Below are positions 28,387-45,547 of a stretch of DNA of 49,613 bases, one piece after another (the first letter of the stretch is position 1; every line of letters begins with the position of its first letter). The notes under the pieces are model-generated. The model worked only from the letters and a program-made list of their open reading frames with translations. It searched no databases and was not told the DNA's origin. The translations under genes and the position numbers were made by a program. Origin of the DNA: Calothrix sp. CSU_2_0 (GTDB taxonomy: Bacteria > Cyanobacteriota > Cyanobacteriia > Cyanobacteriales > Nostocaceae); contig JAAUPE010000043.1 of assembly GCA_012034595.1 (NCBI GenBank), forward strand, positions 1-49,613, in the 5' to 3' direction.

Positions 28387-30024
28387 TTAGTAATCGAAAT
28401 CACCACCCATACCACCAGCAGCACCAGCAGGAGCGCCATCTTTAGGCTCAGGCTTGTCAACAACGATACATTCGGTAGTTAACACCATACCCGCGATCGA
28501 AGCCGCATTTTGCAGCGCAGAACGGGTTACTTTTGCAGGATCGACAATACCAGCAGCGAACATGTCAACATATTCGTTAGTTGCAGCATTGAAACCAACG
28601 TTAAAATCTTTCTGTTTAACGTACTCAGCAATTACCGCACCATTTTGACCAGCATTTTCAGCAATTCTCTTCAAAGGAGAAGTTAACGCACGAGCAACAA
28701 TCATTGCCCCAATTAACTCTTCTTCCTTAAGATTGCCGCTTGCCCAAGTTTCTAACTCAGGTGCAAGATGTGCCAAGGTTGTACCACCACCAGGAACAAT
28801 ACCTTCTTCAACTGCTGCTTTGGTAGCGTTGATTGCGTCTTCCAAGCGAAGTTTTTTGTCTTTCATTTCGGTTTCGGTAGCAGCACCAACTTTCACAACT
28901 GCTACACCACCAGACAATTTTGCAAGACGCTCTTGAAGCTTCTCTTTATCGTAGGAAGATTCAGTTTCTTCCATTTGGCGACGAATTTGTTCGCAACGTG
29001 CTTTCACAGCAACATCATTACCTTCAGCAACAATGGTGGTGCTGTCTTTGGTAATGGTGATCCGACGTGCTTTACCCAGGCTATCGAGCTTGGCAGTATC
29101 TAGCCTCAAACCAGCATCTTCAGTGATGAGTTGACCACCAGTCAAGACAGCAATATCTTCGAGCATGGCTTTGCGGCGATCGCCAAACCCAGGTGCTTTG
29201 ACAGCAGCAACATTCAATACACCGCGCAAACGGTTGACAACTAAAGTAGCTAGTGCTTCCTTCTCGATATCTTCAGCGAGGATTACCAAAGGACGACCAG
29301 AACGGGCAACTTGTTCGAGGATAGGCACTAAATCTTGCACCAAACCGATTTTTTTGTCGGTTAAGAGCAAGTAAGGCTCATCAAACACAGTTTCCATCCG
29401 TTCCGCATCGGTTGCGAAGTAAGGGGAAATATAGCCCTTATCAAAGCGCATACCTTCAGTAATTTCCAATTCGGTGGTCATGGATTTCCCTTCTTCCAAG
29501 GAAATTACACCTTCTTTACCCACCTTATCCATTGCTTGAGCAATCATGTTGCCGACTTCTTCGTCGTTACCAGCAGAGATTGCTCCAACTTGGGCGATCG
29601 CTTTGGAATCTTCAACAGGACGAGCATGTTGCTTGATTTTATCCACCAAGAAAGCAGTCGCTTTATCAATACCGCGCTTCAGCACGATCGCATTCGCACC
29701 AGCAGCAACGTTACGCAAACCTTCTTTGACAATTGCATGAGCCAAAACAGTAGCAGTTGTTGTACCATCACCTGCTGCATCATTGGTTTTGGAAGCAGCT
29801 TGACGAATCAGAGCCACACCAGTATTCTCAACATGGTCTTCTAATTCAATTTCTTTAGCGATGGTTACACCATCATTAATAATTTGAGGTGCGCCAAATT
29901 TCTTTTCTAATACGACATTGCGACCTTTCGGACCAAGGGTGACTGCTACTGCTTCAGTCAAAATATCCATACCACGCTCAAGGGCACGACGAGCGTTTTC
30001 GTTGTAAATAATGCGCTTTGCCAT
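28387..30024 (-). CDS. groEL: 60-kDa chaperonin GroEL
   Basis: A 545-residue chaperonin subunit that folds cytosolic proteins in a double ring capped by GroES. Conserved features include the [15 protein letters not shown] and [17 protein letters not shown] nucleotide-contacting segments, [19 protein letters not shown] with the catalytic Asp region, the apical domain, and the GGM-type C-terminal tail (GGMGGDFDY). It is the second gene of a groES-groEL pair under a CIRCE element. Cyanobacteria usually carry a second, monocistronic groEL; the linkage to groES marks this as groEL1. Confidence 0.97.
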
Positions 30025-30153
30025 AATAATCTAACTTGCTTTGTAAGCTATTTTCTGTGTTTTGGTCGAATGTTAAATTGCTAATTGCGAGGGAATCGCT
30101 AATCAGTAATCGGGATTAAGCCCATTACCCATTAACTATTACCCACTAACCTC

Positions 30154-30465
30154 TTAGCTAACAATTGCTAAAATATCTTTTTCCGAAAGCAACACATACT
30201 CGTCAGTACCGAGTTTGATGTCAGTGCCAGCATATTTAGAGTAAAGAACTTTGTCCCCGACTTTGACATCCATTGACAACCGACCACCATCATCTTTGAA
30301 TTTTCCATCACCGATGGAAACTACTTCACCGACTTGGGGCTTTTCTTTGGCTGTGTCGGGTAAATATAGACCACCTGCGGTCTTTTCTTCAGATGCACTG
30401 ACTTTTACGAAGACGCGATCGCCTAAAGGTTTTACTGTTGATACGCTTAAAGATACTGCTGCCAT
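30154..30465 (-). CDS. groES: 10-kDa co-chaperonin GroES
   Basis: A 103-residue co-chaperonin that caps the GroEL ring. It starts [20 protein letters not shown]. The mobile loop [20 protein letters not shown] has the hydrophobic triplet contacting GroEL. The C-terminal part ([18 protein letters not shown], then [14 protein letters not shown]) is typical. It is 129 bp upstream of groEL on the same strand. A CIRCE dyad lies directly upstream. Confidence 0.97.
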
Positions 30466-30589: not shown

Positions 30590-30720
30590 CAACCCCGGTC
30601 TAAAGACACGGGGCTTCAGCCCAGTTCAAAGTAATTAGTCGGGAACAGATTTAACTGTCCTTCGCCACTTGCTACAACGGGGGGAACCCCCGCAACGCAG
30701 TGGCTCACCAACTGACAACT
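30590..30720 (-). ncRNA. Putative omega (reRNA) guide RNA overlapping the tnpB 3' end
   Basis: In characterised TnpB systems the guide RNA is transcribed from the tnpB 3' end through the right end of the element. Here the stop codon of tnpB lies inside the GGGCTGAAGCCC hairpin, followed by CCCCG..CGGGG and then flanking DNA that would be the guide. The boundaries are inferred from that architecture, not observed. The 5' limit is arbitrary. Confidence 0.45.
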
Positions 30721-31875
30721 AATCCCCGGACTTTCGGGCTGACTTACGGACAACCCCAAAGCTGCAATATTCAACGCAGCATTAATATCAGCGTCATGTT
30801 CAAAACCACAATGCCCACACTTGAACGATTTGCCAGAACGAAAAGACTTGCCTTTGACGGGGTGTACGTGGTGACACCGCGAACAAGTTTGGCTGGTATA
30901 GGCTGGTGGAACCAAAACAACAGGAATACCAGCGATATTTGCCTTGTATTGGGCGAATATTCTCAACTGGTAAAAAGCCCAGTTATTAGTTCTACGACGT
31001 TCGGTTTTACTTCGTGGTTTTTGATTGAGCGATTCTCTGATATTGGTCAAATCTTCAAATGCAATTGCTGCATTCGTAGACTTGGCATCTTGAACAATTT
31101 GCTTGGAAATATTGTGATTCAACCACTTTTGAAAGCGTTGTTCTCTCCCAGAAAGCCTTCTCATCAGCCGCCTAGAACTGCGAGTGCGCTTGGATTGAAT
31201 ATTCGCTCTGACCTTGCTATATCGGTCACGAGTGTTTTGAATCTGTTTACCACTCCAGGATTTACCCGTGGAAGTGGTAGCAATATCGCGTCTACCCAAG
31301 TCAACCCCGATCACCTTGGGAGTTTTCCCTGTTGGGTCGGTCGGGATATCAACACAGATATTGATGTAGTAATCACCTTTACGAGACTTGCAAAACGTTG
31401 CCGATGTTGGTTTTTGTCCTCTCAACAATGCAATTTGGTATCCACCAATCGACATTTTGAATTTGACTCGACCACACATCAGAGTAATGCCAACAGTTTG
31501 CGACTCTTCAATATATTGAAAAGTTCGCACGTCCAAACTAATCGATCTTGGTCGAAACTTGTGAGACACTTGCCGTCTTGGCGCTTTGCGTCGATGGCAA
31601 AGTGTCGAACCCGAAGGGTGGACTTGTTTGACTGCCTTAGCGTTGCCAATCACTCGACGGATTGCCTGACAAACATGGTTTGCTTTCAGCCCGGTAGACT
31701 CACGAACTGGCTTATAAACCTTGTGATGCAACTTGGTTGTGTTCCAGCATTTTTCACGTTTTGCAACCTCCAATATCTGATTACACGCATCAGCAAAGCC
31801 CTGCAAAGTGCGGTCTATTTCAACTCGCAACTCTACAGGGACTATTACTTTGCATTTAACAGATATTGTCTGCAT
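30616..31875 (-). CDS. tnpB: TnpB RNA-guided endonuclease (IS605 OrfB)
   Basis: A 419-residue TnpB, the ancestor-type of Cas12. In known members it cuts DNA next to a TAM under guidance of an RNA from the element end. The RuvC residues appear intact: Asp192 in VIGVDLGRRD, Glu274 in IAFEDLTNIR, and Asp363 in HDADINAALNIA. The zinc ribbon has Cys331, Cys334, Cys353 and Cys356 (QTCSRCHH, FKCGHCGFEH). A basic helical segment (about 225-250) and an N-terminal wedge domain precede it. The length is normal and there are no frameshifts, so it may be active. It lies between groES and the Dnd island. The long plus-strand open frame here is its shadow. Confidence 0.93.
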   Translation of the reverse strand: MQTISVKCKVIVPVELRVEIDRTLQGFADACNQILEVAKREKCWNTTKLHHKVYKPVRESTGLKANHVCQAIRRVIGNAKAVKQVHPSGSTLCHRRKAPRRQVSHKFRPRSISLDVRTFQYIEESQTVGITLMCGRVKFKMSIGGYQIALLRGQKPTSATFCKSRKGDYYINICVDIPTDPTGKTPKVIGVDLGRRDIATTSTGKSWSGKQIQNTRDRYSKVRANIQSKRTRSSRRLMRRLSGREQRFQKWLNHNISKQIVQDAKSTNAAIAFEDLTNIRESLNQKPRSKTERRRTNNWAFYQLRIFAQYKANIAGIPVVLVPPAYTSQTCSRCHHVHPVKGKSFRSGKSFKCGHCGFEHDADINAALNIAALGLSVSQPESPGISCQLVSHCVAGVPPVVASGEGQLNLFPTNYFELG

Positions 31876-32459: not shown

Positions 32460-34010
32460 ATGTATCAAACGCAAACTAGGGTAAAGCATCTACCAAACGA
32501 CGAACCACCAATATTTAGACTGACAACAAAATTATCAATATTTGGTGATAGTAATGGATTGGGTGTTGTTAGCGAACCAAAAGGTAACTATAAAACTAAT
32601 TCTCCATTATTACCAGGTTGTCCACAAATACCAACATCTCTGCAATTGCGTAGTTACCAACGTCAAGCCATTACAAACTGGTTTGCGAATAATGGTAGGG
32701 GTACTTTAAAAATGGCAACAGGTAGTGGTAAAACCATTACAGCCCTAGCAATAGCCTGCGAACTCTACAAACAAATTAATCTGCAAGTATTGTTAATTGT
32801 ATGTCCTTACCGTCACTTAGTTACCCAATGGCAGCGTGAATGCCAAAAATTCAACCTGCAACCAATCTTAGCTTTTGAAACAGCCCGTAATTGGCATAAT
32901 GAATTATCAACTCAACTCTACAATATTAATTCGGGTTCGCAACAATTCCTTACCCTAATTACAACCAATTCTAGCTTCATGGGTGAAAGCTTGCGATCGC
33001 AACTTAAATATTTACCCGAACGGACTTTAATTATAGGTGATGAAGCGCATAATTTAGGGGCAACAAAACTCGAAGAAAGTTTACCTCGTGCTGTGGGTTT
33101 GCGATTAGGATTATCAGCAACTCCCGAACGTTATTTTGATGAAGATGGCACGCGATCGCTATTAGACTACTTTGGTGAAGTATTACAACCTGAATTCACT
33201 CTCAAAGATGCAATTAATCAAGGTGCTTTAGTCCATTATTTATATTATCCAATTCTTGTAGAGTTAACAGAATCAGAAAGTATTACTTACTCAAGACTGA
33301 CTCACAAAATTGGTAAGGCTTTATTATATAAGGAAAGAGAAAATCTCGATTTGGATAGTTTGGAAAAAGCCGAAGACATCACATATTTATTAATGCAGAG
33401 AGCGAGATTAATTGGAGCGGCTGAAAATAAATTACATGCACTACGGGAACTGATGAGAAATCGTCACGAAACAACCCATACTTTATTTTATTGTGGTGAT
33501 GGTTCTATGGAATCATCAAGTGTTTATACTAGCCACAATCAATCTAATTTACATCAATTAAAAGAAGTTGCTCGAATTTTAGGAACTGAATTGAATTATC
33601 GAATTAGTACCTATACTGCACAAACATCATTAACAGAAAGAGAAAGTTTACGAAAACAATTTGAAAGCGGAGAATTACAAGGTTTAGTTGCTATTCGCTG
33701 TTTAGATGAAGGTATTGATATTCCGGCAATTCAAACTGCTGTCATTCTCGCTAGTTCTAGCAATCCCCGGCAATTTATTCAACGTCGCGGAAGGGTTTTA
33801 CGTCCCCATCCGGGAAAGGAGCGAGCCACAATATTTGATATGATTGTTTTGCCTCCAGATTTGGATCGAAAAACACTCGAAGTTGAGAGAAATTTATTAA
33901 AGAAAGAATTACGTCGGTTTGTCGAGTTTGCCGATTTAGCTGATAATTCAGGTGAGGCAAGAATGAAATTATTTGATTTACAAAAAAGATATAATTTAAT
34001 GGATATTTGA
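32460..34010 (+). CDS. SF2 helicase, DNA phosphorothioation-system restriction type
   Basis: A 516-residue DEAH-type superfamily 2 helicase. Motifs: Q-like RSYQRQAITNWF, Walker A GSGKT (88-92), Walker B DEAH (194-197, IIGDEAHNLGA), LSATP near 219, motif V ATRCLDEG-like VAIRCLDEGIDIP, and motif VI QRRGRVLRP. The family resembles the helicase annotated as a phosphorothioation-system restriction enzyme, found beside dnd genes in cyanobacteria. No nuclease domain is evident, so cutting would need a partner. It is the first gene of the Dnd island. Its assignment to restriction is family knowledge plus context, not shown by sequence. Confidence 0.85.
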   Translation: MYQTQTRVKHLPNDEPPIFRLTTKLSIFGDSNGLGVVSEPKGNYKTNSPLLPGCPQIPTSLQLRSYQRQAITNWFANNGRGTLKMATGSGKTITALAIACELYKQINLQVLLIVCPYRHLVTQWQRECQKFNLQPILAFETARNWHNELSTQLYNINSGSQQFLTLITTNSSFMGESLRSQLKYLPERTLIIGDEAHNLGATKLEESLPRAVGLRLGLSATPERYFDEDGTRSLLDYFGEVLQPEFTLKDAINQGALVHYLYYPILVELTESESITYSRLTHKIGKALLYKERENLDLDSLEKAEDITYLLMQRARLIGAAENKLHALRELMRNRHETTHTLFYCGDGSMESSSVYTSHNQSNLHQLKEVARILGTELNYRISTYTAQTSLTERESLRKQFESGELQGLVAIRCLDEGIDIPAIQTAVILASSSNPRQFIQRRGRVLRPHPGKERATIFDMIVLPPDLDRKTLEVERNLLKKELRRFVEFADLADNSGEARMKLFDLQKRYNLMDI

Positions 34011-34532
34011 ATTAATCACAATGAAAATAAATCAAAACATGAGTCATATCTTTCTCTATCATCCTTTTCTAGTAATTTGGGGTAAACACTTCAATCCATA
34101 TTCATTAATTTTCATTTAAACTCTGTTCCTTCTTTGTCTTTTTGTCGCTGATGCACTAAATAAAAAAGATATAAGCCATAAAATAGCAGTTTAAATTAAC
34201 ATAAAGAAGATTTGCAATTATTATGATGTACAGTCAAACGATTCAAAAGCCATATATAAAGCTTTTTTAACTCTGACTTCTGCTGTATGTGAACAGAAAT
34301 AAATAAAGTTTTCTTGAATTTATTGTTTAAAGGTTTAAGAGATTTTAATAATTAAGGATTATAAAATATAAATTTAGTCTAAAAGAAAACATCTAAGGTG
34401 ATAGATTTTATAAAAACAGCGAATTATAAGGCTTTTCAATATTAATATCTGCAACTTTAATGACAGCATCTTTACGGATATGATAATCCAGTAAAAAGTA
34501 CTACAATTATCTCAAGATAATATTTGATACAA
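34011..34532. other. 522-bp AT-rich stretch, no gene seen
   Basis: Between the helicase gene and the small dnd-linked ORFs. Strongly AT-rich, with no open frame, hairpin or repeat that I can support. Confidence 0.4.
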
Positions 34533-34667
34533 GTGAAAAAATACTATGAATCGAGCGGGATTTATTCGCGTTTATCTGTGTCGATTTCGGACTTTGACGG
34601 TCAAGTACTCTCTGCCGTTAGTGAACTCAACAATAAAAAGTTTCTTCAACAGTTAAATAAGTTCTAA
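34533..34667 (+). CDS. Possible small ORF or gene remnant (44 aa)
   Basis: From GTG 34533 the frame reads VKKYYESSGIYSRLSVSISD and continues FDGQVLSAVSELNNKKFLQQ to a stop at 34667. The composition is protein-like in this frame, whereas an alternative ATG at 34546 gives an unlikely peptide. There is no good ribosome-binding site. It could be the tail of a degraded gene or a tiny upstream member of the ATPase operon. Confidence 0.3.
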   Translation: MKKYYESSGIYSRLSVSISDFDGQVLSAVSELNNKKFLQQLNKF

Positions 34668-34698
34668 ACATATTAATTAAAAACAATAAAAAACTCTA

Positions 34699-34872
34699 AT
34701 GCTAAAAGAACATAATATCGATGATGTACATGAACCAATAAACCATGCTCCAGCAGAAGTAAAACAAATCATAGAAAGAGTATGGCAATTAGAAAAAAGC
34801 CGACTAGATAAGAAAAGTCTCAGCCATATTAATGACGATATCTTGATGATCATAAAAGAATCAGTACGATGA
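34699..34872 (+). CDS. Small Dnd-island protein, translationally coupled (57 aa)
   Basis: The frame from ATG 34699 (MLKEHNIDDVHEPINHAPAE) to TGA 34870-34872 encodes 57 residues: acidic at the start, then helical (EVKQIIERVWQLEKSRLDKK) and ending DDILMIIKESVR. The stop overlaps the ATG of the following ATPase as ATGA, strong evidence that it is translated and coupled to that gene. NCBI names a family of small proteins associated with DNA modification systems in such positions. I place this ORF there only tentatively. Confidence 0.7.
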   Translation: MLKEHNIDDVHEPINHAPAEVKQIIERVWQLEKSRLDKKSLSHINDDILMIIKESVR

Positions 34873-36941
34873 AGCTAATATCAATAAAGCTTTGTAACTT
34901 TCGCTCGTTTTATGGCAAAACACCAGAGATAATTTTAGCTGGTAACGAAATTACCAACACGACAGTTATTCATGGTAATAATGGTAGTGGAAAAACGAGT
35001 TTATTAAATGCATTTACCTGGGTACTTTACGAAAAATTTAGTGCAGCATTTGCATCCACCGAACAATTAGTAAATAAACGTGCGATCGCAGAAGCACAAA
35101 TCGGCAATTCAGTTGATTGTTGGGTAGAGGTAGCATGGGAACACGACAGCAAACGCTACCGTGTCAAACGTCAATGTCGCGCACATAAAACCCAAAGCGA
35201 ATTTGAAGCTGGAAAAACCGAGCTTTACATGCAAGTTGCAGGGGATGATGGACGTTGGTATTTACCACCTCAACAGCCCGAAGAAATTATCAATCAGATT
35301 TTACCAAGTAGCTTGCACCAGTACTTTTTCTTTGATGGAGAACGTATCGAACAAATAGTTCGCAGCGATAAAAAAACCGAAATAGCAGAAGCAACAAAAA
35401 TGCTTTTAGGTGTTGAGGTAATTAACCGTTCAATCAAACATTTAGGGGAAGCAAAGCGAACTTTAGAAGCGGAACTAAAAGCAATCGGGAATTCGGAAAT
35501 TAAACAATTACTCAAACAACAAACAAAAATCGAAATTAAAATAGTAGAGATTCAACAGCGACAGCAAGAAATTAGCCAAGAGATTGAATATCAGAACAGA
35601 TTTAAAAAAGAAACTAGTACTTGTTTGCGAGAGCTTAGTGCAGCTAAAGAATTACAAGAAAGACGACATCATTTAGAAACTCAAAAAACAGCTTTACAAG
35701 AACAATTACGAAAATCTCGCGAAAATATTAAGCGCTTTATCACTACACGCGGTTATACCGCTTTGCTTTCAGAAACCACATCACAATTTTGCAGAATTAT
35801 CGAAAAGCTGAAAGAGTCTGGAGAGCTAAAAGCGGGAATATCTAGGGAATTTATTCACGATTTACTTAGGAAAAATAAATGCATCTGTGGAGCAGATTTA
35901 CATGATGGTGGAAAATCATCCGAACACATCAAGCATTGGTTAGATAAAGCGGGTTCTTCTACAGTCGAAGAAATTGCAATTAGGGTAGGAGTACAAATAG
36001 ATGAAATTGATAAACAAGCTACTAGTTTTTGGGAAGAAATTGATAGAGAGCAATTAGAAATTAGTAGTTTTAGGCAGAAGATTTCCCAACTAGAACAAGA
36101 CTTAGATAATATTCAAGAAAGATTACGAAAAGACCCAAGTGAGGAAATTCGCAGTTTTCAAAAACGTCTTGATGCAATTGAAAGTAAAATTTCCGAATTA
36201 ATTTTTGAACAAGGTAGAAATCAGCAGCAAGTTGAGAGTTTTAAATCTGAATTAGATGACTTAAATAAAAAAATTAATAAGCAGAAGTTTCATGAAGAGA
36301 GGCAAGCATTAGCGCAACGACGAATTACAGCAGCACAAGATGCAATTGATAGATTGGCTGAAGTTAAAATTCGCCAAGAAAATCATTTTCGTCAACAATT
36401 AGAAAAACGTGTTCAAGAAATATTTTGTGCGATTTCTCCTGCTCCCTATATTCCTAAAATTAGCGAAAAATACGAATTGACGCTAGTAGAAAATACATTA
36501 GGTTTGGAAATGCCAGTCGCAGCTTCGACAGGAGAAAATCAGATTCTCAGCTTATCTTTTATTAGTAGTATTATTGATAAAGTCCGCGAATGGAGTTACA
36601 AGAAAAAAATGTTAATGCTACCTGAAAGTAGTACATTTCCAATTGTGATGGATTCACCATTTGGTAGTTTGGATGAAAATTCTCGGCGACATGTTGCCAA
36701 AATAGTTCCCGAATTAGCAAATCAGCTTGTTGTTTTGGTGACTAAAACTCAATGGAGAGGTGAAGTTGCGGAGGAAGTTGGTAATAGAATTGGTAGGGAA
36801 TATGTGTTGACTTATTATTCTTCTAAACCCGATTGCGAACAAAATTATATTGAATTGCGAGGGGAGAGATATCCTTTAGTTAGGCAAAGTCCAAATGAGT
36901 TTGAATATACGGAGATTGTTGAGGTAGATAGAAATAGTTAA
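34869..36941 (+). CDS. SMC/Rad50-like ATPase of the Dnd island (DndD paralogue)
   Basis: A 690-residue ABC-type ATPase. Walker A is GNNGSGKT (36-43) after KLCNFRSFYGKTPEIIL. Two long coiled-coil arms (about 190-300 and 390-500) flank a CxC motif, Cys338-Ile-Cys340-Gly in NKCICGADL, positioned like a Rad50 zinc hook. The signature-like STGENQILSLSFISSIID, Walker B FPIVMDSPFG and D-loop SLDEN follow near 545-605. It is distinct from the dndD at 41359: different hook, signature and length. It overlaps the 57-aa ORF by 4 bp. It probably belongs to the phosphorothioation-dependent defence arm, perhaps as a sensor ATPase; this is inference. Confidence 0.8.
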   Translation: MKLISIKLCNFRSFYGKTPEIILAGNEITNTTVIHGNNGSGKTSLLNAFTWVLYEKFSAAFASTEQLVNKRAIAEAQIGNSVDCWVEVAWEHDSKRYRVKRQCRAHKTQSEFEAGKTELYMQVAGDDGRWYLPPQQPEEIINQILPSSLHQYFFFDGERIEQIVRSDKKTEIAEATKMLLGVEVINRSIKHLGEAKRTLEAELKAIGNSEIKQLLKQQTKIEIKIVEIQQRQQEISQEIEYQNRFKKETSTCLRELSAAKELQERRHHLETQKTALQEQLRKSRENIKRFITTRGYTALLSETTSQFCRIIEKLKESGELKAGISREFIHDLLRKNKCICGADLHDGGKSSEHIKHWLDKAGSSTVEEIAIRVGVQIDEIDKQATSFWEEIDREQLEISSFRQKISQLEQDLDNIQERLRKDPSEEIRSFQKRLDAIESKISELIFEQGRNQQQVESFKSELDDLNKKINKQKFHEERQALAQRRITAAQDAIDRLAEVKIRQENHFRQQLEKRVQEIFCAISPAPYIPKISEKYELTLVENTLGLEMPVAASTGENQILSLSFISSIIDKVREWSYKKKMLMLPESSTFPIVMDSPFGSLDENSRRHVAKIVPELANQLVVLVTKTQWRGEVAEEVGNRIGREYVLTYYSSKPDCEQNYIELRGERYPLVRQSPNEFEYTEIVEVDRNS

Positions 36942-37195
36942 TGCATGTTAGGAGTTTTTAAAAAATAACTTGAAGATTTTTGATGGTTCACTTAAGCAAG
37001 CTAGCTAATTTCAAATTTAATTTGTATGAATTATTTTTGCATAAAGTTAAATTTGAGAGATTCAATTGTTAATCAAGCGTTAATAGATTATAGGATTTAC
37101 GCGAAGAAAACGGGTTTCTGGCTTCACGTGCGTAAGTCCTAAGATTAAGTTTAATTAGGTGTTATTTAAATCATTTCTAAGCATCTACTACAAAC

Positions 37196-37669
37196 ATGGC
37201 AGAAATAGGAAGAATTAGAGTCGCAAAAGATAAAGCAGAATTAGTCAAAGCTTTAACATCCGCAGATAATGGAACTGGTCCTTTTCAAACCTTTGCTGAT
37301 GTGGTTGTATTTGCGGCTGCGTTGGGTGCAAAACATAAAAAACGGGTTCCATTAGGTGAAATTTCTAAACGGGAACCAGCACCGATTAGAGTTGAGTATT
37401 TCAATTCAATGGGTCACGATCGCGTAATTAAGTTACTCGGATGTACGGAAACTCAAAATATTAAAATTCTCTCTCCCCTTGAAGAAGGATTTGATGTTCA
37501 GCGTAATGAAATTTTTGAGGAGTATGCAAATGGAGGATTGGAGATTTTACAAGTAGAATTACGGGGAGCGGTGGATTATACGGAGAGAATTTTATTGCTA
37601 TTAAGTTACGAGAGGAGTAATCGAGAAACACAAGAGGAAGAATTTAATTTGACTAAATTCCTCTCTTAG
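37196..37669 (+). CDS. Dnd system-associated protein 4
   Basis: A 157-residue protein. It starts MAEIGRIRVAKDKAELVKAL, then has PFQTFADVVVFAAALGAKHKKRVPL and a C-terminal part rich in E and L (GLEILQVELRGAVDYTERIL). I recall this pattern as the family called dnd system-associated protein 4, found next to dnd genes and of unknown biochemical role. It lies 254 bp after the ATPase gene on the same strand and converges with dndB. Confidence 0.8.
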   Translation: MAEIGRIRVAKDKAELVKALTSADNGTGPFQTFADVVVFAAALGAKHKKRVPLGEISKREPAPIRVEYFNSMGHDRVIKLLGCTETQNIKILSPLEEGFDVQRNEIFEEYANGGLEILQVELRGAVDYTERILLLLSYERSNRETQEEEFNLTKFLS

Positions 37670-37783
37670 TTTTGTTGATTTTTTTATTGGAGTATCCAAA
37701 TTTTTTATTTTTTTAACGCAAAGGTGCGCTAAGGTTAACGCGGAGATACGCAGAGGAATATAGAGCTTTTATTGTTTTAACTT

Positions 37784-39382
37784 TTAAAGAATATCTGGAA
37801 GTCCGACTTCTTTTGCTTGAACAAAATTCCCTTGAAAATCCATTGCTTTGTTTTCAAAACTTCTGGCTTTTGCTAAGTCTTTCCTTAATTCTGCACGCTC
37901 CATTGAATCTTGCATTCCACCGAGTATATAGATGATTAATCTCGTTGCTAAATCCTTTCCAGCAACTAATATACGCTTACGATTTGGGTCATATAATACA
38001 CCGTAGAAAAGTGAATTGGGAAACTCTATATTACTAAATCCACCCTGTTTATCGAACTTACGAAGCTTTTTAAAAATCTTGTCGAGAGATATTTGTTTTT
38101 TAAAAACTAAAATACCTAAAGCTTGCACTAAAGCGACTTGACCAACAGGACGAAAAAGCATATTTCCTTCACCACCATTTTTCTCAAAACTGAAACGTCG
38201 TAATGCTGGTGTACCTTCATCCTCGACAATCTTATAACTGGAAAGACTCGCTAAATAATCAAAAAGCTGATAAAATTCTGCAATTCCGGCTTCAATTTCG
38301 TCATTTTCTGGACGCAAGGAAATTAAACCTTTCTCTTGCTTCCAATTGAGAAATTTCTGACCTAAATAACGCTCTGACATCTCCTTCAAAGCTTGTAATG
38401 TGGTCAAAACTGTGGATTTATTCGCTACTGTTGCACTATTCCAATTAATCCGAGGTTTGCGATTTTCTTGTTGTTGAAAAAGAGGATGACCGATCGCAAT
38501 TTTTCTCGCAACAATAGAGAAACCATCATCTTCATCTAATTGGGTTAATTGACCTTTTGTTAAAGCAACAGCCATCAAATTAACATGAACAAAAATAGAC
38601 CTGATTCTTCGTCTTGCTTCTTCACGAGTTTCTCCAGCTACAACTGCTGAGATAAATTCGATACCTATTTTTTCTTGGGGTAAGTTTTGTAAATAAGCCG
38701 GTGACACTTGATATTGTTCGTACAAATCATCTACTGTCAGGGGAGTCGAGTAGGGAGTTTTATCTTTTTTGTAACGCTCCATTTTACCAGTCTTTAATAA
38801 TTCGATTAACCCCTGTACTCCCATTAAGCGATGTTGTCCATCTAATGCATAAATAGTAACATTTGCTGCTGAAATATCTAGCACCCCAATTTTTCCATCC
38901 TTATCGATTGGAGTAAAGTTGCTGGAAGATTTGATTGCTTTACCTTCCCCATCCCATTCTGGTGCATTAGGATTATCTACCCAAGGTTGGTTGATTACTA
39001 CTAGAACTGGTGGGAATTTATGGTTTTTCCGTGATGCTAAATATTGTACTAAAGCAATTTGACGTGACCAATCTAATGGACGTTGTTGAATTTCGTCGAT
39101 GCTATCTGCATCTATCTCTATATTGTCAGTTTGGGGGTTATATTTACCTTGAAGTAGTGGTAAGTTGGCAGCAAAATTTACGTAATTTGCAAACCATTCT
39201 ATTGTGACTGAGCTAACATAAGCTTCTGTGCCACCCATTTCCGTTTTCTGGGCAAAAAGATTGTGTTGCTCTCCTTCAATCAATTTATCTAGGAGTGATA
39301 CTAGGAGATTTTTATCAGTATTTATACTTGTGGAATTGGACTCATTTGTATCTGTAACTCGCGGGGAATTTTTCGGACTCAT
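37784..39382 (-). CDS. dndB: DNA sulfur modification protein DndB
   Basis: A 532-residue DGQHR-domain protein with the signature at residues 181-185 (TIYALDGQHRLMGVQGL). The N-terminal region has the ARKNHKFPPVLVVINQPW segment typical of the family. DndB is described as a repressor and modulator of phosphorothioation; it is not needed for the sulfur chemistry itself. It is transcribed away from dndC, so the 238-bp spacer 39383-39620 should hold the divergent promoters and possibly its own operator. I see no obvious palindrome there. The gene is intact. Confidence 0.9.
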   Translation of the reverse strand: MSPKNSPRVTDTNESNSTSINTDKNLLVSLLDKLIEGEQHNLFAQKTEMGGTEAYVSSVTIEWFANYVNFAANLPLLQGKYNPQTDNIEIDADSIDEIQQRPLDWSRQIALVQYLASRKNHKFPPVLVVINQPWVDNPNAPEWDGEGKAIKSSSNFTPIDKDGKIGVLDISAANVTIYALDGQHRLMGVQGLIELLKTGKMERYKKDKTPYSTPLTVDDLYEQYQVSPAYLQNLPQEKIGIEFISAVVAGETREEARRRIRSIFVHVNLMAVALTKGQLTQLDEDDGFSIVARKIAIGHPLFQQQENRKPRINWNSATVANKSTVLTTLQALKEMSERYLGQKFLNWKQEKGLISLRPENDEIEAGIAEFYQLFDYLASLSSYKIVEDEGTPALRRFSFEKNGGEGNMLFRPVGQVALVQALGILVFKKQISLDKIFKKLRKFDKQGGFSNIEFPNSLFYGVLYDPNRKRILVAGKDLATRLIIYILGGMQDSMERAELRKDLAKARSFENKAMDFQGNFVQAKEVGLPDIL

Positions 39383-39620
39383 ATAAACTTTTAGCCATAA
39401 GGGGTTGACAGGTAAGCCAACTTTATTAAAAGATTGTATACCTACTAATATGGTTTTTAAAAATTGTTGAAAGATTTATTTGATTTATTTAATCTTACGT
39501 AATAATCCTAATTATGTAAAATTTAGGTGTAATTAAGCATATTTTATAAAATAGTTTTAGGGACTTATTTTTGTTGAATTTGTTGTCTTCACTGGCTTTG
39601 ATGCGTGAGAAGAGGAAGAA
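39383..39620. promoter_or_regulatory. Divergent dndB/dndC promoter region
   Basis: A 238-bp AT-rich spacer between divergent dndB and dndC. No clear dyad was seen. At its right end AGAGGAAG (39611-39618) is a strong ribosome-binding site for the ATG at 39621, which decides the dndC start. Confidence 0.5.
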
Positions 39621-41356
39621 ATGGGTAAATCACAGTCTAAAGAAAAAAAAGTGAAAGTAAAAATTCAAAAAATCGCAATATTGAAGAGTTTGTTGAAGAA
39701 GTACAAGCTTTGACATTAGAAATTCAAAATTTATATTGCTTAGATTCTGTCGCTTGGTGTATTGGTTATAGCGGGGGAAAAGATAGCACAGCGACTTTAC
39801 AATTGATTTGGAATGCGATCGCACAACTTCCTATCGAAAAACGCACAAAGACAATTCACGTCATCACTACAGATACTCTGGTGGAAAATCCTTATGTTTC
39901 TGCTTGGGTACGGAATTCTTTGGAGCAAATTAGAATTGCTGCCGCATCTCAACAGTTGCCAATTGTACCTCATTTACTCCACCCAGAATTAAAAGAAACA
40001 TTTTGGGTTGGTTTGATTGGCAAAGGTTATCCAGCACCAAGAAGAAAGTTTCGTTGGTGTACGGAACGTTTAAAAATTAGTCCTTCTAACCGCTTTATTC
40101 GAGATATGATTCGAGTTAGCGGAGAGGCAATTGTTGTTTTGGGTATCCGCAAAGCAGAGAGTACATCCCGTGCGGCAAGAATGAAGGAATGGGAAGCTAA
40201 ACGAGTACGCGATCGCTTAAGTCCAAATATGAATTTGCCTAATTCCCTAGTTTATAGTCCGATTGAAGATTGGCGCAATGATGAGGTTTGGCTATATTTA
40301 ATGCAGTGGGAAAATCCTTGGGGATACAGCAACAAAGATTTATTTAGCATGTATCGAGGTGCAACTGCTGATAATGAATGTCCTTTAGTTGTAGATACTT
40401 CGACTCCGAGTTGTGGAAGTTCTCGTTTTGGCTGTTGGGTATGTACTTTGGTGAGCGAAGATAGTTCACTCTCGGCAATGATTCAAAATGATGAAGAGAA
40501 GGAATGGTTGCAACCACTTTTAGATTTTCGCAGAGAATTAGATATTGAAGATGAAGATAGAGATTGGAGAGATTTTCGACGCAGAACGGGGGAAGTTCAA
40601 CTCTACGAACGTCATATTGAAGATGAAATTTCGATTGAACCAATTCCTGGTCCATATATTAAGGAAGTTAGGGAATATTGGTTAAAAAAAATCCTTGCGG
40701 TGGAGCAACGTTTACGACTTACAGCACCGGAGGGAATGCGTGATATAACATTAATAACTAGTGAAGAGTTGAGCGAAATTCGCCACATTTGGTTAAATGA
40801 AAGGCATGAATTTGATGATAGTTTACCCAGGATTTATAAAGAAGTGACTGGAAAAGAATTTATCGATCCCCGTCCAGGAGCAGATGCCAGTTTATTGGGT
40901 AGCGATGAATGGTCAGTACTTGAAGAAATTTGCGAAGGTGATGCCATGCACCTAGAATTAATGGCAAAATTATTAGATACTGAATACCAATTTAGAAAGC
41001 GATCGCGTCGTATTGGTATCTATGATGCGTTGGAAAAATGCTTTGCTACAAGTTCCCGTTCCCAAGGAGAAGCTATCAAAAATGCCCACCTTAAAAGAGA
41101 TTTACGGGAAGCTGTAAGTGAAGGAAATGTGGCAAAGGTGAAGCAGTTAACTTTGGGTGATGCATTGTTAACGAATGAAGTGGATAATCCAGGACAAGAA
41201 GCATTTTTAGATTTAGGAAATACAGTAGATTCAGTTGATAATTTGCCAGTAGAAAGTCAGTTAGATAATTTAAATCAAGGGAAAAACTGGAAAAATATTA
41301 AATATCAATCCAAAGACTCAAAAGAATCTGGTAACAATGTAGAGACGCAGAGTTGA
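39621..41356 (+). CDS. dndC: DNA sulfur modification protein DndC, N-terminal frameshift
   Basis: PP-loop ATP pyrophosphatase/PAPS-reductase-like Fe-S enzyme that activates DNA for sulfur insertion. The ATG at 39621 has a strong ribosome-binding site (AGAGGAAG) and gives MGKSQSKEKK. The frame then breaks in an A8 run (39643-39650). One more A joins it to SESKNSKNRNIEEFVEEVQA and the main frame, giving about 578 residues. The main frame has no ATG start of its own near the N-terminus, only TTG 39710. Conserved features: the PP-loop IGYSGGKDSTATLQ, PRRKFRWCTERLKI, and a Cys cluster NECPLVVDTSTPSCGSSRFG followed by CWVC that fits a 4Fe-4S site. Confidence 0.9.
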
Positions 41357-41358
41357 AG

Positions 41359-43358
41359 ATGAAATTTATCGAAATAGTATTACAAAATTTTGGTCCCTAC
41401 TGCGGGAAACAAGTTATTAATCTCGATACTCAAGTTGATGATGAAAATTTTCGTCCAATTTTATTATTAGGTGGAATGAATGGTGGAGGAAAAACCACCC
41501 TCATGGATGCTATGCGTTTAGCTTTGTATGGACATCGCGCTCAATGTTCGACTCGTGGTAATTTGAGCTATGGTGATTTTTTGAGTCAATGCGTTAATAG
41601 TGATTCTAATTCACTTGATAAAACCCGGATTGAATTAACATTCGAGCATATTCAAGAAGGTAAAGCGACAAAATATAAAATAGTTCGTTACTGGGAAAAA
41701 ATCCCAAAGAAGGAAAGGATACTTTAGGTATTTTAGAATTAGGGTATGTTAGTAATGATGAGTGGTTACGAGAGGAATTAGTTAATACTTGGGATGATTT
41801 TATCGAAAATTTACTTCCTTTAGGTATTTCTAATCTCTTTTTATTTGATGGGGAACAAGTTAAAGAGTTAGCAGAACAGGAAATTCCTCCCCTTATTGTT
41901 ACCGATGCCATCAGGGCACTTTTGGGTTTAGAGTTAGCAGAACGTTTAGCAATTGATATTGATATTTTAGTTAACCGCAAACGCAAAGAAACATCTGATA
42001 GTAAAGATGTTGTTAATTTAGAAGAAATAGAAGAAAAACTAGATTTTTTACAAACTGAATATCAGGAATTAAAAAATGCGGAGATGTTGCAAATAACATC
42101 TGTAGAAAATGCAGAAAAAGAAGAAAAAGCCGCATTCAACCAATTTGTTTCCGAAGGTGGAAAAATTGCCTCTGAAAAAAGCCAATTAGAAAAACAACAT
42201 CATCAAAAAACTCTAGAAGTCGAAGAAGCACGTCAAGGAATGTGCGAAATGGCAGCAGGTGTTTTACCCCTAGCTTTGATTGATAATTTATTAATCCAAG
42301 CACAAACCCAAGGTGAGAAGGAATATCGGATTCAACAAGCACAAATTGCTGGTGATATTTTATTTGAACGAGATAAACGCTTACTAGATTTGATTACAAA
42401 ATTGAACATTTCTCCAACAGATTTTACACAAATTAAAGAATTTTTAGCTGAAGATATCACAACTTTAAATGCTAATTTAATTCAACCAGAGGAAATGTGG
42501 TTGTCTGCTGATGCTGAGAATTTAAGTCAGTTAGGAAATGTTTTATATTATTTACAAAATGCGAGAAATCTTGCCAAACAACAACTGAAAATTTTGATTA
42601 ATAAAGAAGATGAAATTATCGCATTAGAACGACAAATGCAAACCGCAGCATCTCCTGAAGCATACGATAATTTAGTCGAGAAACTGAAGAATGCCCAGAA
42701 AAATTTTACTAACACAAAGTTAAATTATGCCAGCATCAAACAACGTGTAGTTGAATTAGAAAATGAGATAGAAAAAACAAAAAAAGAACTCAAAGAATAT
42801 ACAACCCAAACAATTGATAAAAATAACACCGAACATATCATCACAGCATCTGCAAAAGTTCAAGAAACCCTCAAAATATTTAGAGAAAAACTAACTTTAC
42901 GCAAGTTGAATAAACTCGAAAAAGAAGTAACAGAGTGCTTTCGTTACTTATTACATAAATCTGACTTAGTGCATCGCGTCGCCATCGATACCCATACCTT
43001 TAGTCTATCCCTTTACGATCCCCAAGGGAAAACTGTCCCCAAACATCGTTTATCTGCTGGGGAAAAACAACTATTAGCAATAGCCTTCTTATGGGGTTTA
43101 GCACGTCTCTCCGGACGAAAACTTCCAGTAGCTATTGATACCCCATTAGGGAGATTAGATTCATCCCATCGTAGTAATTTAGTCGATAAATATTTTCCTG
43201 CCGCCAGCCATCAAGTTATACTTTTATCAACAGATACAGAAATAGGTGAAAAAGAAGTAAAAGTGTTAAGAGAATCAGGTGCGATCGCACGGGAATATTT
43301 GCTCAAGTATGATTCCGCTAAACGTCAAACAACGGTGGTTGATGGGTATTTTTGGTAA
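41359..43358 (+). CDS. dndD: DNA sulfur modification protein DndD, single-base frameshift
   Basis: SMC-like ATPase thought to energise or nick DNA during phosphorothioation; about 666 residues when repaired. ATG 41359 (MKFIEIVLQNFGPYCGKQVI) lies two bases after the dndC stop codon. Walker A GMNGGGKT is at 39-46. The frame breaks at GGGAAAAAATCCC (A6 at 41696-41701): seven A would read WEKNPKEGKDTLGILELGYV and match the downstream frame. After the break come LFLFDGEQVKELAEQEIPPL, coiled-coil arms, the signature LSAGEKQLLAIAF, and Walker B LPVAIDTPLGRLD. It is uncertain whether the break is real or an assembly error. Confidence 0.9.
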
Positions 43359-43363
43359 TTATT

Positions 43364-43605
43364 TGGAATTGGGCATTGGGGATTGGGGATTGGGGATTGG
43401 GGATTGGGCATTGAGAAGTAAATATATATTTAGTTTTCCTAATTTCTAACTCCTAATTCCTAATTCCTAATTCCTAATTCCTAATTCCTAACTCTTAACT
43501 CCTAATTCCTAATTCCTAATTCCTAACTCCTAATTCCTAATTCCTAATTCCTAACTCCTAACTCCTAACTTCAAACTCCTAATTCTTAACTCCTAACTCC
43601 TAACT
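43364..43605. repeat. STRR arrays filling the dndD-dndE gap
   Basis: GGGCATT/GGGGATT heptamers (43364-43413), then about two dozen CTAACTC/CTAATTC heptamers (43438-43605). The repeats end eight bases before the dndE start codon and replace any normal ribosome-binding site. dnd genes are usually tightly packed, so this is probably a late insertion or expansion. Confidence 0.85.
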
Positions 43606-43613
43606 TATTATTT

Positions 43614-44006
43614 ATGGAACCACCAATTGAACGTGTGAAAATATCGCAAACCGCGAAAGAGCAATTAAGCAAACTGAAACGTGTCACCAAGATAGACCAA
43701 TGGAATATATTATGTCGTTGGGCTTTATGTCGTTCATTAGCCGAACCGACATTACCTTCACCTATCACAATTAAATTAGATAGTAATGTGGAAATGACTT
43801 GGCGAGTATTCGGTGGTGAAATTTCTGATATGTTATTAATAGCACTCAAACAGCGCTGTTATCATGATGCATTGGGTACTGATAAAAACGTTTTAGCCGA
43901 GCAATTAATTTTACATTTACATCGCGGAATTGGTTATTTAGCTGGTGACGCAAATATCAAGAAAGTTGAAGATTTAATTGAATTGGCGACAAAAAATAGT
44001 AAATAA
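43614..44006 (+). CDS. dndE: DNA sulfur modification protein DndE
   Basis: A 130-residue DndE, starting MEPPIERVKISQTAKEQLSK. The conserved core LKRVTKIDQWNILCRWALCRSLAEP and the C-terminal HLHRGIGYLAGD are present. DndE forms a tetramer that binds nicked double-stranded DNA in described systems and is essential for the modification. The gene lies downstream of dndD beyond a 255-bp STRR-filled gap, so its translation may depend on its own initiation signal, which I cannot see. Confidence 0.92.
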   Translation: MEPPIERVKISQTAKEQLSKLKRVTKIDQWNILCRWALCRSLAEPTLPSPITIKLDSNVEMTWRVFGGEISDMLLIALKQRCYHDALGTDKNVLAEQLILHLHRGIGYLAGDANIKKVEDLIELATKNSK

Positions 44007-44059
44007 TTGGTAATGAATTAATTCTGAGTACTAAATAATTATTTATTACTGAGCCTCTT

Positions 44060-45547
44060 ATGGCAAAGAGCCAATTAGAAATTGAGCGTCATCGAGCAGC
44101 TATTCCCCGTCTTGACATTTCCCGTCCAGTCAAATTAGCAATGGAGTGCAATATTTTGACTGGAGAAACAACCTTTTTCGATTATGGTTGCGGACATGGG
44201 GGAGATGTCCAGCGTACACTTGGATTGGGAATTGCCAGCAAAGGATGGGATCCTTATTATTTTCCTGACTGCGATCGCATTTCTGCTGATATCGTCAACT
44301 TAGGTTACATCCTCAATGTGATTGAAGATATTCAAGAACGACGGGAAGCTTTATCCAACGCTTGGAAATTAACCCAAAAAGTACTAATTGTTTCAGCACA
44401 AGTCTTGCTCAATGAACTGAGTAACAGTGTCATACCTTACGGTGATGGTATAGTTACCCGCATCAATACTTTCCAAAAATATTACGAACAAGAAGAACTC
44501 AAACAATACATAGACGAAACTATCAATGTTGATGCTGTTCCCGTCGCTTTAGGAGTCTACTTTGTCTTTCGTGATGAAGAACAAAAAGAAAAGTTTAAAG
44601 CCGAAAGATTTGCTTCGCGAATTTATACCCCTAGAATCCGCACTTCAAATAAAAAATTTGCCGATTACCAAGAAATTTTACAGCCATTAATGGCATTTTA
44701 TACCCAACGTGGTAGATTACCAATTAAAGACGAACTCGAAAACCAAGAGCAGATATTAGCAGAATTTCGTAACTTCAACCGTGCCTTTTCTGTCATTTTA
44801 CAAGTAACCGACGAAACCGAATGGGATGCGATCGCATATCGTCGTTCTTTAGATATTCAAGTTTATCTCGCACTTTCACACTTTGATGGCAAACGTCCGA
44901 GATTGGATCAACTTCCTCCAGGGATGAGGCAAGATATTAAAGCGTTTTTTGGTACTTATGAAGATGCTTATGAAATTGCTGGAGACAAGATTTTTAGCCT
45001 GGGAAATCCAGACATAGTGAAAGCGACTTGTGATAAAAGTAAAATCGGCAAACGTACCCGTAGTGCGCTCTATGTCCATGTTTCCACACTCCAAGAACTC
45101 GATCCCCTACTGCGAATTTATGAAGGTTGTACAACTCGCTGCATTGGACGCATAGATGGAACAACTTTAATCAAATTTAGCACCGAAGAACCGCAAATAT
45201 CATATCTGTTTTACCCTACATTCGACAAAGAACCACATCCAGCATTAGCTGCAAGCATTATTATTGATTGGAAAACCCGGAAAGTCACCCATCACGATTA
45301 CAGCAAACGCAAAAACCCCCCAGTGTTGCACCGTAAAGAGACATTTGTAACCCCAGATTATCCTCAGTATGGAAAGTTTGCCCGTTTGACCCAACGTGAA
45401 GAAAAATTAGGATTACTTGACAGAAAGAATCATATAGGCACTCGTGATGCTTGGATGCAATGTTTGGAAGAACATGGAATCGAATTGAGAGGATATCAAA
45501 TTCGCTACATTAAACAAAAATTAGATGGGAATGAGGAAATAAATTAA
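44060..45547 (+). CDS. DNA phosphorothioation-associated putative methyltransferase
   Basis: A 495-residue protein with a class I methyltransferase N-terminal domain: motif I FFDYGCGHGGDVQRTL (about 39-54) and NLGYILNVIEDIQERREALS as the post-motif region. A long C-terminal part of unknown fold follows (IVKATCDKSKIGKRTRSALY, YGKFARLTQREEKLGLLD). I recall this as the methyltransferase family that accompanies dnd clusters in cyanobacteria and other phyla. Its substrate is unknown. It could be protein, tRNA or DNA. It is 53 bp after dndE on the same strand and likely the last gene of the dndCDE operon. Confidence 0.85.
   Translation: MAKSQLEIERHRAAIPRLDISRPVKLAMECNILTGETTFFDYGCGHGGDVQRTLGLGIASKGWDPYYFPDCDRISADIVNLGYILNVIEDIQERREALSNAWKLTQKVLIVSAQVLLNELSNSVIPYGDGIVTRINTFQKYYEQEELKQYIDETINVDAVPVALGVYFVFRDEEQKEKFKAERFASRIYTPRIRTSNKKFADYQEILQPLMAFYTQRGRLPIKDELENQEQILAEFRNFNRAFSVILQVTDETEWDAIAYRRSLDIQVYLALSHFDGKRPRLDQLPPGMRQDIKAFFGTYEDAYEIAGDKIFSLGNPDIVKATCDKSKIGKRTRSALYVHVSTLQELDPLLRIYEGCTTRCIGRIDGTTLIKFSTEEPQISYLFYPTFDKEPHPALAASIIIDWKTRKVTHHDYSKRKNPPVLHRKETFVTPDYPQYGKFARLTQREEKLGLLDRKNHIGTRDAWMQCLEEHGIELRGYQIRYIKQKLDGNEEIN

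What the first reader, a model, noticed from the sequence alone, without database searches (positions are those of the whole stretch)
32460..45547. An extended Dnd phosphorothioation island with an extra ATPase arm
dndB, dndC, dndD and dndE are joined by a methyltransferase of the dnd-associated family, a restriction-type SF2 helicase, dnd-associated protein 4, a second SMC/Rad50-like ATPase and a 57-aa coupled ORF. The layout is two arms around convergent dndB and the dndB/dndC divergent promoter. There is no dndA and no recognised DptFGH set. If the helicase, the small ORF, the second ATPase and protein 4 form one functional unit, this would be a phosphorothioation-dependent defence variant different from DptFGH.
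Basis: partly seen in the sequence, partly recalled or inferred. Interest (0 to 1): 0.8.

Follow-up and report, generated by a model that had tools for sequence, protein, structure and literature searches.

The report
Cyanobacterial DNA-sulfur Dnd–Pbe defence locus
This is a cyanobacterial copy of a known phage-defence locus that marks the cell's own DNA with sulfur, and comparison with relatives suggests that the marking enzyme and a small partner protein change their DNA target together.

Summary
"dndB" is a DGQHR-family protein, not the DndB equivalog. The helicase lacks the PLD/HKD nuclease part of PbeA (no HKD motif in 129 homologous frames). Across 141 genomes of the order, PbeC and PbeD agree in presence or absence in 140, PbeC and dndC in 131, although all four genes lie within 30 kb in only 26 of 95. 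This speaks against the published statement that cyanobacteria lack a PT restriction partner. Most novel: in 111 close locus pairs, the DndC segment with the published "specificity loop" and the small protein PbeD switch together (30 both same, 76 both different, 5 discordant), while PbeA, PbeC and the dndB between them do not. This suggests matched writer and reader specificity. It did not clearly replicate across the deeper order.

The parts
32460..34010 (+). pbeA-like SF2 helicase, 516 aa, without the N-terminal PLD/HKD nuclease domain
   Evidence: TIGR04095 672 bits; best PADLOC PbeA model matched only from position 244; no HxKx4D motif in 129 stop-to-stop frames of homologues (126 distinct, up to 609 aa)
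34699..34872 (+). pbeB-position small protein, 57 aa, conserved
   Evidence: in 106 loci (93 distinct sequences), each within 19 bases of PbeC; 25-sequence alignment with 8 invariant columns; no library family for the window protein
34869..36941 (+). pbeC, CxC-type ABC/Rad50-like ATPase, 690 aa
   Evidence: PADLOC PbeC 1130 bits; CxC motif in 105 of 106 extracted sequences, the exception (L065) looking like a DndD picked by mistake
37196..37669 (+). pbeD = dnd_assoc_4, 157 aa; proposed target-reading subunit
   Evidence: TIGR04062 189 bits; AlphaFold model (mean pLDDT 71) ranks DndE crystal structures first, weakly
37784..39382 (-). DGQHR-domain protein of the DndB superfamily, 532 aa
   Evidence: TIGR03187 180.6 bits, PF14072 54.3 bits, TIGR03233 below cut-off
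39710..41356 (+). dndC, 548 aa, with loop GYPAPRRKFRW at residues 106-116
   Evidence: TIGR03183 691 bits; loop read
41353..43358 (+). dndD, reading frame broken near 41690-41725; pieces 41353-41727 and about 41748-43358
   Evidence: 35 of 35 complete relatives intact
43614..44006 (+). dndE, 130 aa
   Evidence: PF08870 144 bits
44060..45547 (+). dnd-associated putative methyltransferase, 495 aa
   Evidence: TIGR04096 669 bits; family in 56 of 61 genomes of the order

Best explanation
The locus is a DndBCDE-PbeABCD phosphorothioation-based defence system of a cyanobacterium close to Calothrix. DndC, DndD and DndE, with a cysteine desulfurase encoded elsewhere, put sulfur into the DNA backbone at a short target. 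PbeC-PbeD (CxC ABC-ATPase with a DndE-like partner), the small PbeB and the PbeA helicase act on DNA that lacks the mark. In this lineage PbeA has no PLD/HKD nuclease, so the block is more likely translocation, looping or replication arrest than degradation. Target choice is proposed to sit in DndC (about residues 80-250, including its specificity loop) on the writing side and in PbeD on the reading side; the two must match, so they switch together while PbeA, PbeC and dndB stay fixed. Shown here: gene content and order, co-occurrence, absence of HKD, co-switching among close relatives. Taken from papers: PT-dependence and antiviral effect of PbeABCD in Haloterrigena; the DndC loop. Inferred: PbeD as target reader, and activity in this strain. 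In this assembly the only dndD found is frameshifted, so the writer may be off.
For: Families. Gene order. Concerted presence/absence in 141 genomes: PbeC/PbeD 111 both, 1, 0, 29 neither; PbeC/dndC 105, 7, 3, 26; PbeA/PbeC 106, 2, 6, 27. PbeA and PbeC distances correlate 0.91 with each other and 0.81/0.80 with gyrB in 34 genomes. PbeD-DndC partial Mantel given PbeC 0.41, p 0.0003, n = 47, against 0.013 for PbeD-DndB. In 111 close pairs the types agree in 106; 22 disjoint pairs 9/1/0/12, Fisher p 2e-5; of 21 DndC-type and 21 PbeD-type changes 16 fall on the same branch, 4.8 expected. DNA islands in L107/L108 and three other type-different pairs. DndB does not follow PbeD type (p 0.86). DndC loop: PMC12193691.
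Against: The order-wide set of 42 genomes shows only weak whole-protein coupling (partial 0.154, p 0.043) and no local signal like that of the named set; loop class (p 0.27) and exact triplet (p 0.75) do not predict PbeD there. At larger PbeC distances in the named set agreement falls: above 0.26 none of 41 pairs with equal DndC type share PbeD type. The segment limits were chosen on the same 47 sequences in which concordance was then counted. DndB is weakly tied to DndC type (p 0.034; partial 0.23). The PbeD-DndE fold match is weak (best E 0.46) and profile comparison found none (probability 1.6 %). dndD is broken here. I know of no measured target or activity for these loci.
Confidence: 0.66

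Rival explanations
1. The DndC and PbeD types travel as one transferred block between congeners, and the concordance is linkage, not matched specificity.
For: PbeD and dndC lie only a few kb apart in the 47 loci; DndC type is weakly tied to DndB (p 0.034); the coupling is weak in the order-wide set.
Against: dndB, which lies between them, does not follow PbeD type at DNA level (p 0.86) and the PbeD-DndB partial is 0.013; in 19 genomes where PbeD and dndC are not within 20 kb on one contig the whole-protein partial is still 0.33, p 0.006, though some of these are drafts.
Confidence: 0.28
2. In this strain the locus is decaying: the writer is dead through the dndD frameshift, and pbeA has been cut off from its usual place behind lexA by a rearrangement at a TnpB gene.
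For: Single broken dndD against 35 of 35 intact complete relatives; lexA precedes pbeA in 68 of 69 named loci with pbeA (the exception lies at a contig end), but no lexA or argF match lies in the window, where TnpB and groES-groEL stand instead.
Against: The rest of the dndD frame is open for 559 aa and the other genes of the locus are single open frames, so the change is recent or a sequencing error; the pbeA coding start lines up with NIES-4101.
Confidence: 0.4
3. The cyanobacterial genes serve a housekeeping role such as oxidative-stress protection or gene regulation, not defence.
For: Widespread, nearly always single-copy, largely vertical inheritance in the order; Jian et al. 2021 propose an antioxidant origin (PMC8569181, passages).
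Against: That proposal leaned on the absence of a restriction partner, but PbeABCD genes are present with nearly the same distribution; switching of DndC and PbeD types among close relatives looks like conflict, not housekeeping.
Confidence: 0.2
4. A new PT-dependent defence variant distinct from all described ones.
For: PbeA without HKD, DGQHR-type DndB and an added TIGR04096 gene.
Against: Gene order, PbeA and PbeC families and the Dnd partners match PbeABCD.
Confidence: 0.06

Closest known systems
DndCDEA-PbeABCD of Haloterrigena jeotgali A29 (PMC6459918)
   Same: Helicase, small protein (66 aa there), AAA_23/SMC-like ATPase and 152-aa protein in the order A-B-C-D next to dndC-D-E
   Different: There PbeA carries a PLD domain, dndA is in the cluster and dndB is absent. 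Here PbeA has no PLD/HKD, a DGQHR protein is present, dndA is not in the locus, and a TIGR04096 gene follows dndE
CxC ABC-ATPase systems (PMC10853773)
   Same: PbeC with a CxC motif (105 of 106), a possibly DndE-like small partner, SF2 helicase, small protein
   Different: That paper calls the small protein rapidly evolving and mostly disordered and places target specificity in DndE. Here PbeB is conserved, and DndE differed by 3.7 % in the only 4 type-different close pairs with DndE data, while DndC and PbeD changed
Cyanobacterial dnd systems (Jian et al. 2021, PMC8569181)
   Same: dnd genes enriched in Nostocales and vertically inherited in Cyanobacteriales
   Different: That paper states that PT restriction systems are absent in Cyanobacteria (the restriction genes in its search list are DndF, G and H; 'pbe' does not occur in its text); here PbeABCD genes are present in parallel with dndC
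DndFGH / DptFGH
   Same: Restriction partner of a PT writer
   Different: No DndF, DndG or DndH among the family matches listed for the locus proteins (lists cut at 25 for some proteins)

Membership tests
PbeABCD | Four genes in the order A-B-C-D beside dndC/D/E | tested here: met
   Window; order A-B-C-D seen in 50 of 80 named loci and contradicted in none
PbeABCD | PbeA = PLD/HKD nuclease domain fused to SF2 helicase | tested here: not met
   Model matched only from position 244; no HKD motif in 129 homologous stop-to-stop frames. The nuclease half fails and the helicase half is met, so it is filed as a variant
PbeABCD | PbeB small protein before PbeC | tested here: inconclusive
   Position and size fit and the gene is conserved, but no library model matched convincingly and it was not compared with the archaeal PbeB
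PbeABCD | PbeC AAA_23 / CxC ATPase | tested here: met
   1130 bits; CxC in 105 of 106
PbeABCD | PbeD of about 150 aa, cognate of DndE | tested here: inconclusive
   TIGR04062 met; DndE fold suggested by weak structure matches, not by profiles; the PADLOC DndE model matched 2 of 20 members weakly
PbeABCD | PT-dependent antiviral activity | not testable with these tools
   Needs strains and phage
Dnd PT writer | DndC sulfurtransferase | tested here: met
   TIGR03183 691 bits
Dnd PT writer | Intact DndD | tested here: not met
   Frame broken in this assembly; intact in 35 of 35 complete relatives
Dnd PT writer | DndE | tested here: met
   PF08870 144 bits
Dnd PT writer | DndA or a substituting cysteine desulfurase | tested here: inconclusive
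   No hit over the DndA cut-off; three desulfurase-like genes at 331-448 bits elsewhere
DndB equivalog | TIGR03233 over cut-off | tested here: not met
   19.9 bits against 328
DndFGH | DndF, DndG, DndH | not tested
   None among the listed matches of the locus proteins; not searched genome-wide

The most novel reading that the evidence does not exclude
In a largely vertically inherited cyanobacterial Dnd-Pbe locus, target specificity is modular and split between two proteins: a segment of the sulfur writer DndC (with the specificity loop, sometimes with part of DndD) and the small reader PbeD. Recombination replaces both in step, leaving PbeA, PbeC, DndB and probably DndE unchanged, like exchange of target-recognition domains in type I restriction but distributed over two genes. 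This makes PbeD the sequence-reading subunit of PbeABCD, and places the main target choice of the writer in DndC, not in DndE.
Probability: 0.5. Interest if true: 0.82.

Novelty: new variant of a known kind. Interest (0 to 1): 0.62.

Why it matters
How PbeABCD recognises DNA is open, and how Dnd systems choose their target rests on one recent model. Natural pairs of Nostoc-like strains that share nearly the whole locus except for PbeD and a DndC segment would make both directly testable. Separately, the finding that PbeABCD genes track dndC across a cyanobacterial order removes a premise of the proposal that cyanobacterial phosphorothioation began as a stand-alone antioxidant system.

Tried and rejected
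Looked for a lost HKD part of pbeA upstream of 32460 in three frames by eye: none recognised, and relatives lack it too, so it is not a truncation in this strain alone. My first HKD count used trimmed starts and could have hidden an N-terminal domain; it was redone on stop-to-stop frames (129 frames, 126 distinct, up to 609 aa, at least one cut short by a stop near the match start) with the same answer. Looked between pbeA and pbeB for a broken gene: only the 57-aa ORF recognised. Considered programmed frameshifting in dndD: set aside because 35 of 35 complete relatives read straight through. Tested PbeD against DndE by profile: negative; by model: DndE structures rank first but weakly. Tested whether the co-switching holds in the deeper order set: weak or absent at segment level. 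Conserved neighbours (30 largest clusters looked at, one member each of three tested by hmmscan; lexA and argF named from sequence by recall) gave lexA, argF, Uma2, HNH and a second DndB-like gene; no HKD nuclease was recognised. A three-sequence alignment of the methyltransferase family used guessed start sites and was not used further. The VIA structure library was not available.
Full report
What is there. The window belongs to a 7.44-Mb, 306-contig cyanobacterial genome; the closest named relative of its PbeC among the 80 kept is Calothrix sp. NIES-4101, 85 % identical (records of the genome itself may be left out there). dndD is split: 41353-41727 carries TIGR03185 positions 1-113, and the remainder continues in another frame as an open stretch of 559 aa matching 121-650. 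It is the only dndD the family search found in the genome. Of 44 relatives with a dndD N-terminal match, 35 reach the stop codon inside the locus and all 35 are intact (659-673 aa, all distinct); 9 run off the end. The gene called dndB is a DGQHR-family protein (TIGR03187) under the DndB equivalog cut-off.

What it is. The right-pointing left arm is PbeABCD. Xiong et al. 2019 (PMC6459918; passages and section 8 read) described helicase, 66-aa protein, AAA_23 ATPase and 152-aa protein in this order beside dndCDEA; deletion of pbeB, C or D abolished protection, deletion of pbeA left a little, and protection depended on PT. Section 8 gives PbeA a PLD domain. The 2024 re-analysis (PMC10853773; passages and section 15 read) calls PbeA an HKD nuclease fused to a helicase, PbeB a rapidly evolving small protein, PbeC a CxC ABC-ATPase and PbeD a DndE cognate. 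Here PbeC has the CxC motif in 105 of 106 extracted homologues, no HKD motif occurs in 129 PbeA frames (126 distinct, up to 609 aa; the listed frames run from 451 to 577 aa), and the small protein is well conserved and within 19 bases of PbeC in 106 of 106 loci. Some of these loci are the same contig fetched twice: L032/L163 and L035/L170 agree in contig length. A model of PbeD (mean pLDDT 71) has DndE crystal structures at ranks 1-6, with poor E-values (best 0.46) and TM-scores by target length of 0.54-0.59 for those six; profile comparison with DndE gave nothing. In 80 named loci the order pbeA-B-C-D, reversed dndB, dndC, dndD, dndE is contradicted in none: A-B-C in 69, A-B-C-D in 50, through dndC in 44, through dndE in 23.

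How widespread. The helicase passes its cut-off in 162 of 195 genomes of the order. I tested 141 of these 195: 61 (the window's and 60 chosen for a strong helicase hit on usable contigs), and 80 that include all 33 without a helicase over cut-off; 54 were not tested. E-value limits were stricter in the second set (1e-60 for dndC and PbeC, 1e-15 for PbeD) than in the first (1e-3, 1e-20, 1e-3). PbeC and PbeD: 111 both, 1 PbeC only, 0 PbeD only, 29 neither. PbeC and dndC: 105, 7, 3, 26. PbeA (over cut-off) and PbeC: 106, 2, 6, 27; three of the six PbeC genomes counted as lacking PbeA have a sub-threshold helicase match with E below 1e-65. Of 95 genomes where all four were placed, 26 have them within 30 kb, another 26 have all four on one contig but further apart, and the other 43 have them on more than one contig, which in drafts says nothing about distance. 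TIGR04096 is in 56 of 61. In 34 genomes, PbeA and PbeC distances correlate with gyrB at 0.81 and 0.80 and with each other at 0.91; DndC correlates with gyrB at 0.62. So the unit is largely vertically inherited, kept or lost in concert, and often scattered. Jian et al. 2021 (PMC8569181, passages) found dnd genes vertical in Cyanobacteriales and wrote that PT restriction systems are absent in Cyanobacteria; the restriction genes in their search list are DndFGH. My search for PbeABCD with cyanobacteria returned two reviews, seen only as a listing.

Co-switching. In 46 named loci plus the window, PbeD and DndC are the genes that depart from the rest. Before any segment was chosen, the whole-protein partial Mantel of PbeD with DndC given PbeC was 0.41 (p 0.0003), against 0.013 for PbeD with DndB and 0.23 for DndC with DndB. 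A window scan on the same data pointed to about DndC 110-250 and PbeD 58-112. Using these limits, among 111 pairs with PbeC under 8 % divergent (32 loci), both types were the same in 30, both different in 76, and discordant in 5 (4 of them involve L103); 10 of 15 threshold settings gave this same table, and the other five, with the looser PbeD limit of 0.3, gave 34/0/3/74. At larger PbeC distances the tables are 57/7/26/290, 26/29/1/186 and 0/41/0/307. In the 76 different pairs mean divergence is PbeC 4.8 %, PbeA 3.8 %, DndB 3.9 %, LexA 4.2 %, ArgF 6.1 %, DndE 3.7 % (4 pairs only), but PbeD 58-112 49.8 %, DndC 110-250 24.7 %, DndC 341-450 6.7 %; DndD reaches 22-24 % in its middle third over 15 pairs. 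With disjoint pairs the tables are 6/1/0/5, 8/1/0/8, 9/1/0/12 and 9/2/0/12 for four distance limits (Fisher p 0.015 to 2e-5). On one PbeC+DndB tree without support weighting, 21 DndC-type and 21 PbeD-type changes share 16 branches, 4.8 expected if all branches were equal. Types permuted within PbeC clades do not reach the observed agreement (p 0.0002 at three clade limits).

DNA islands. L107 (Nostoc sp. XA010) and L108 (Desmonostoc muscorum FACHB-395), in blocks of 120 bases: pbeA 90-100 %, pbeB 96-98, dndB 92-99, pbeC 90-98 except its last block (76), dndD 89-99 up to where L108 ends, while pbeD is 59-73 and dndC falls to 59-79 in nucleotides 241-600 (82 in one further block, otherwise 88-98). 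The type-equal pair L107/L123 shows 93-97 in pbeD and 91-99 in dndC except its last block (83). The type-different pairs L128/L130, L129/L133 and L121/L129 show islands in pbeD and dndC too; in the last two the first block of pbeD is spared, and in L128/L130 the island covers all of dndC and the start of dndD. L117/L146 is more diverged throughout and has no dndC comparison. These six pairs were picked by me. dndB, which lies between them, does not follow PbeD type (p 0.86) and follows DndC type weakly (p 0.034, 42 loci, 132 close pairs).

Link to target choice. A 2025 paper (PMC12193691; passages and section 10 read) proposes a DndC specificity loop, G-Y-P-A-P-x-x-x-F-R-W, whose three variable residues go with the PT motif; Arg-Xxx-Lys/Arg goes with GGCC, and changing the three residues abolished modification. 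The window reads GYPAPRRKFRW (residues 106-116), so a GGCC core is predicted by that paper's rough rule. The loop lies in the switching segment. In close pairs an exact triplet match goes with PbeD type in 106 of 111 (30/4/1/76); at larger PbeC distances the agreement falls (58/60/25/237; 25/40/2/175; 0/28/0/320). The same triplet can sit in different DndC and PbeD types (RGK with two), so the triplet is not the whole of it. The window's own dndC is of another type (RRK) than that of its closest relative NIES-4101 (RNQ), and is nearest in this segment to L093 and L101; its PbeD segment is a type of its own, nearest to L171 and, equally, L092, L098, L106, L115 and L128, most of which carry DndC type 1 like the window.

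Results against. In 42 genomes spread over the order, whole-protein coupling given PbeA is 0.154 (p 0.043), 0.33 (p 0.006) in the 19 with PbeD and dndC not within 20 kb on one contig, and no segment stands out as in the named set, although the DndC part around residues 125-190 is again the one least tied to PbeA and PbeD is least tied around 59-95 and at its C-terminal end. Type sharing was significant in one of four distance strata (p 0.016; the others 0.54, 0.28, 0.32), and loop class (p 0.27) or exact triplet (p 0.75) did not predict PbeD. PbeD may evolve too fast for this depth, but that is an excuse until tested. The segment limits are post hoc.

Verdict. As a locus this is a variant of a known system, with a possibly dead writer in this strain. 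The distribution result and the co-switching did not appear in my paper searches; listings and the passages named above are all I saw.

Noticed in passing
window 30616-31875 and 28387-30465: A TnpB gene and groES-groEL stand upstream of pbeA, while in 68 of 69 named loci with pbeA a lexA-like gene lies there; a rearrangement seems to have cut pbeA from lexA in this strain.
   Followed up: partly
L032-L171, upstream of pbeA: lexA-like gene directly before pbeA in 68 of 69 named loci and 17 of 60 order loci, with argF in 84 loci; a possible link to SOS control.
   Followed up: no
for example L042:2438-3361, near DndB/PbeD: A gene cluster whose tested member is an HNH endonuclease (PF13391) occurs near the locus in 29 of the loci examined.
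   Followed up: no
for example L072:908-2074: A second DndB-like gene, whose tested member matches PF14072 strongly (286.6 bits), lies near the locus in 20 loci, so the DGQHR protein of the window is a different branch.
   Followed up: no
L100:13185-13754 and similar: A gene cluster whose tested member is Uma2 lies mostly next to PbeC or PbeD in 31 loci.
   Followed up: no
TIGR04096 genes of G094, G153, G060, G121 and others: In many genomes the dnd-associated methyltransferase family lies in a frame of 618-1065 aa together with a second, partial match upstream in the same frame.
   Followed up: no
gyrB of G058, G174, G043, G075 and others: gyrB frames of 1085-1645 aa suggest inteins or other in-frame inserts.
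   Followed up: no
G142: A 3.8-Mb single-contig genome of the same family keeps the helicase next to lexA but has no match for PbeC, PbeD or dndC, a natural loss for comparison.
   Followed up: partly
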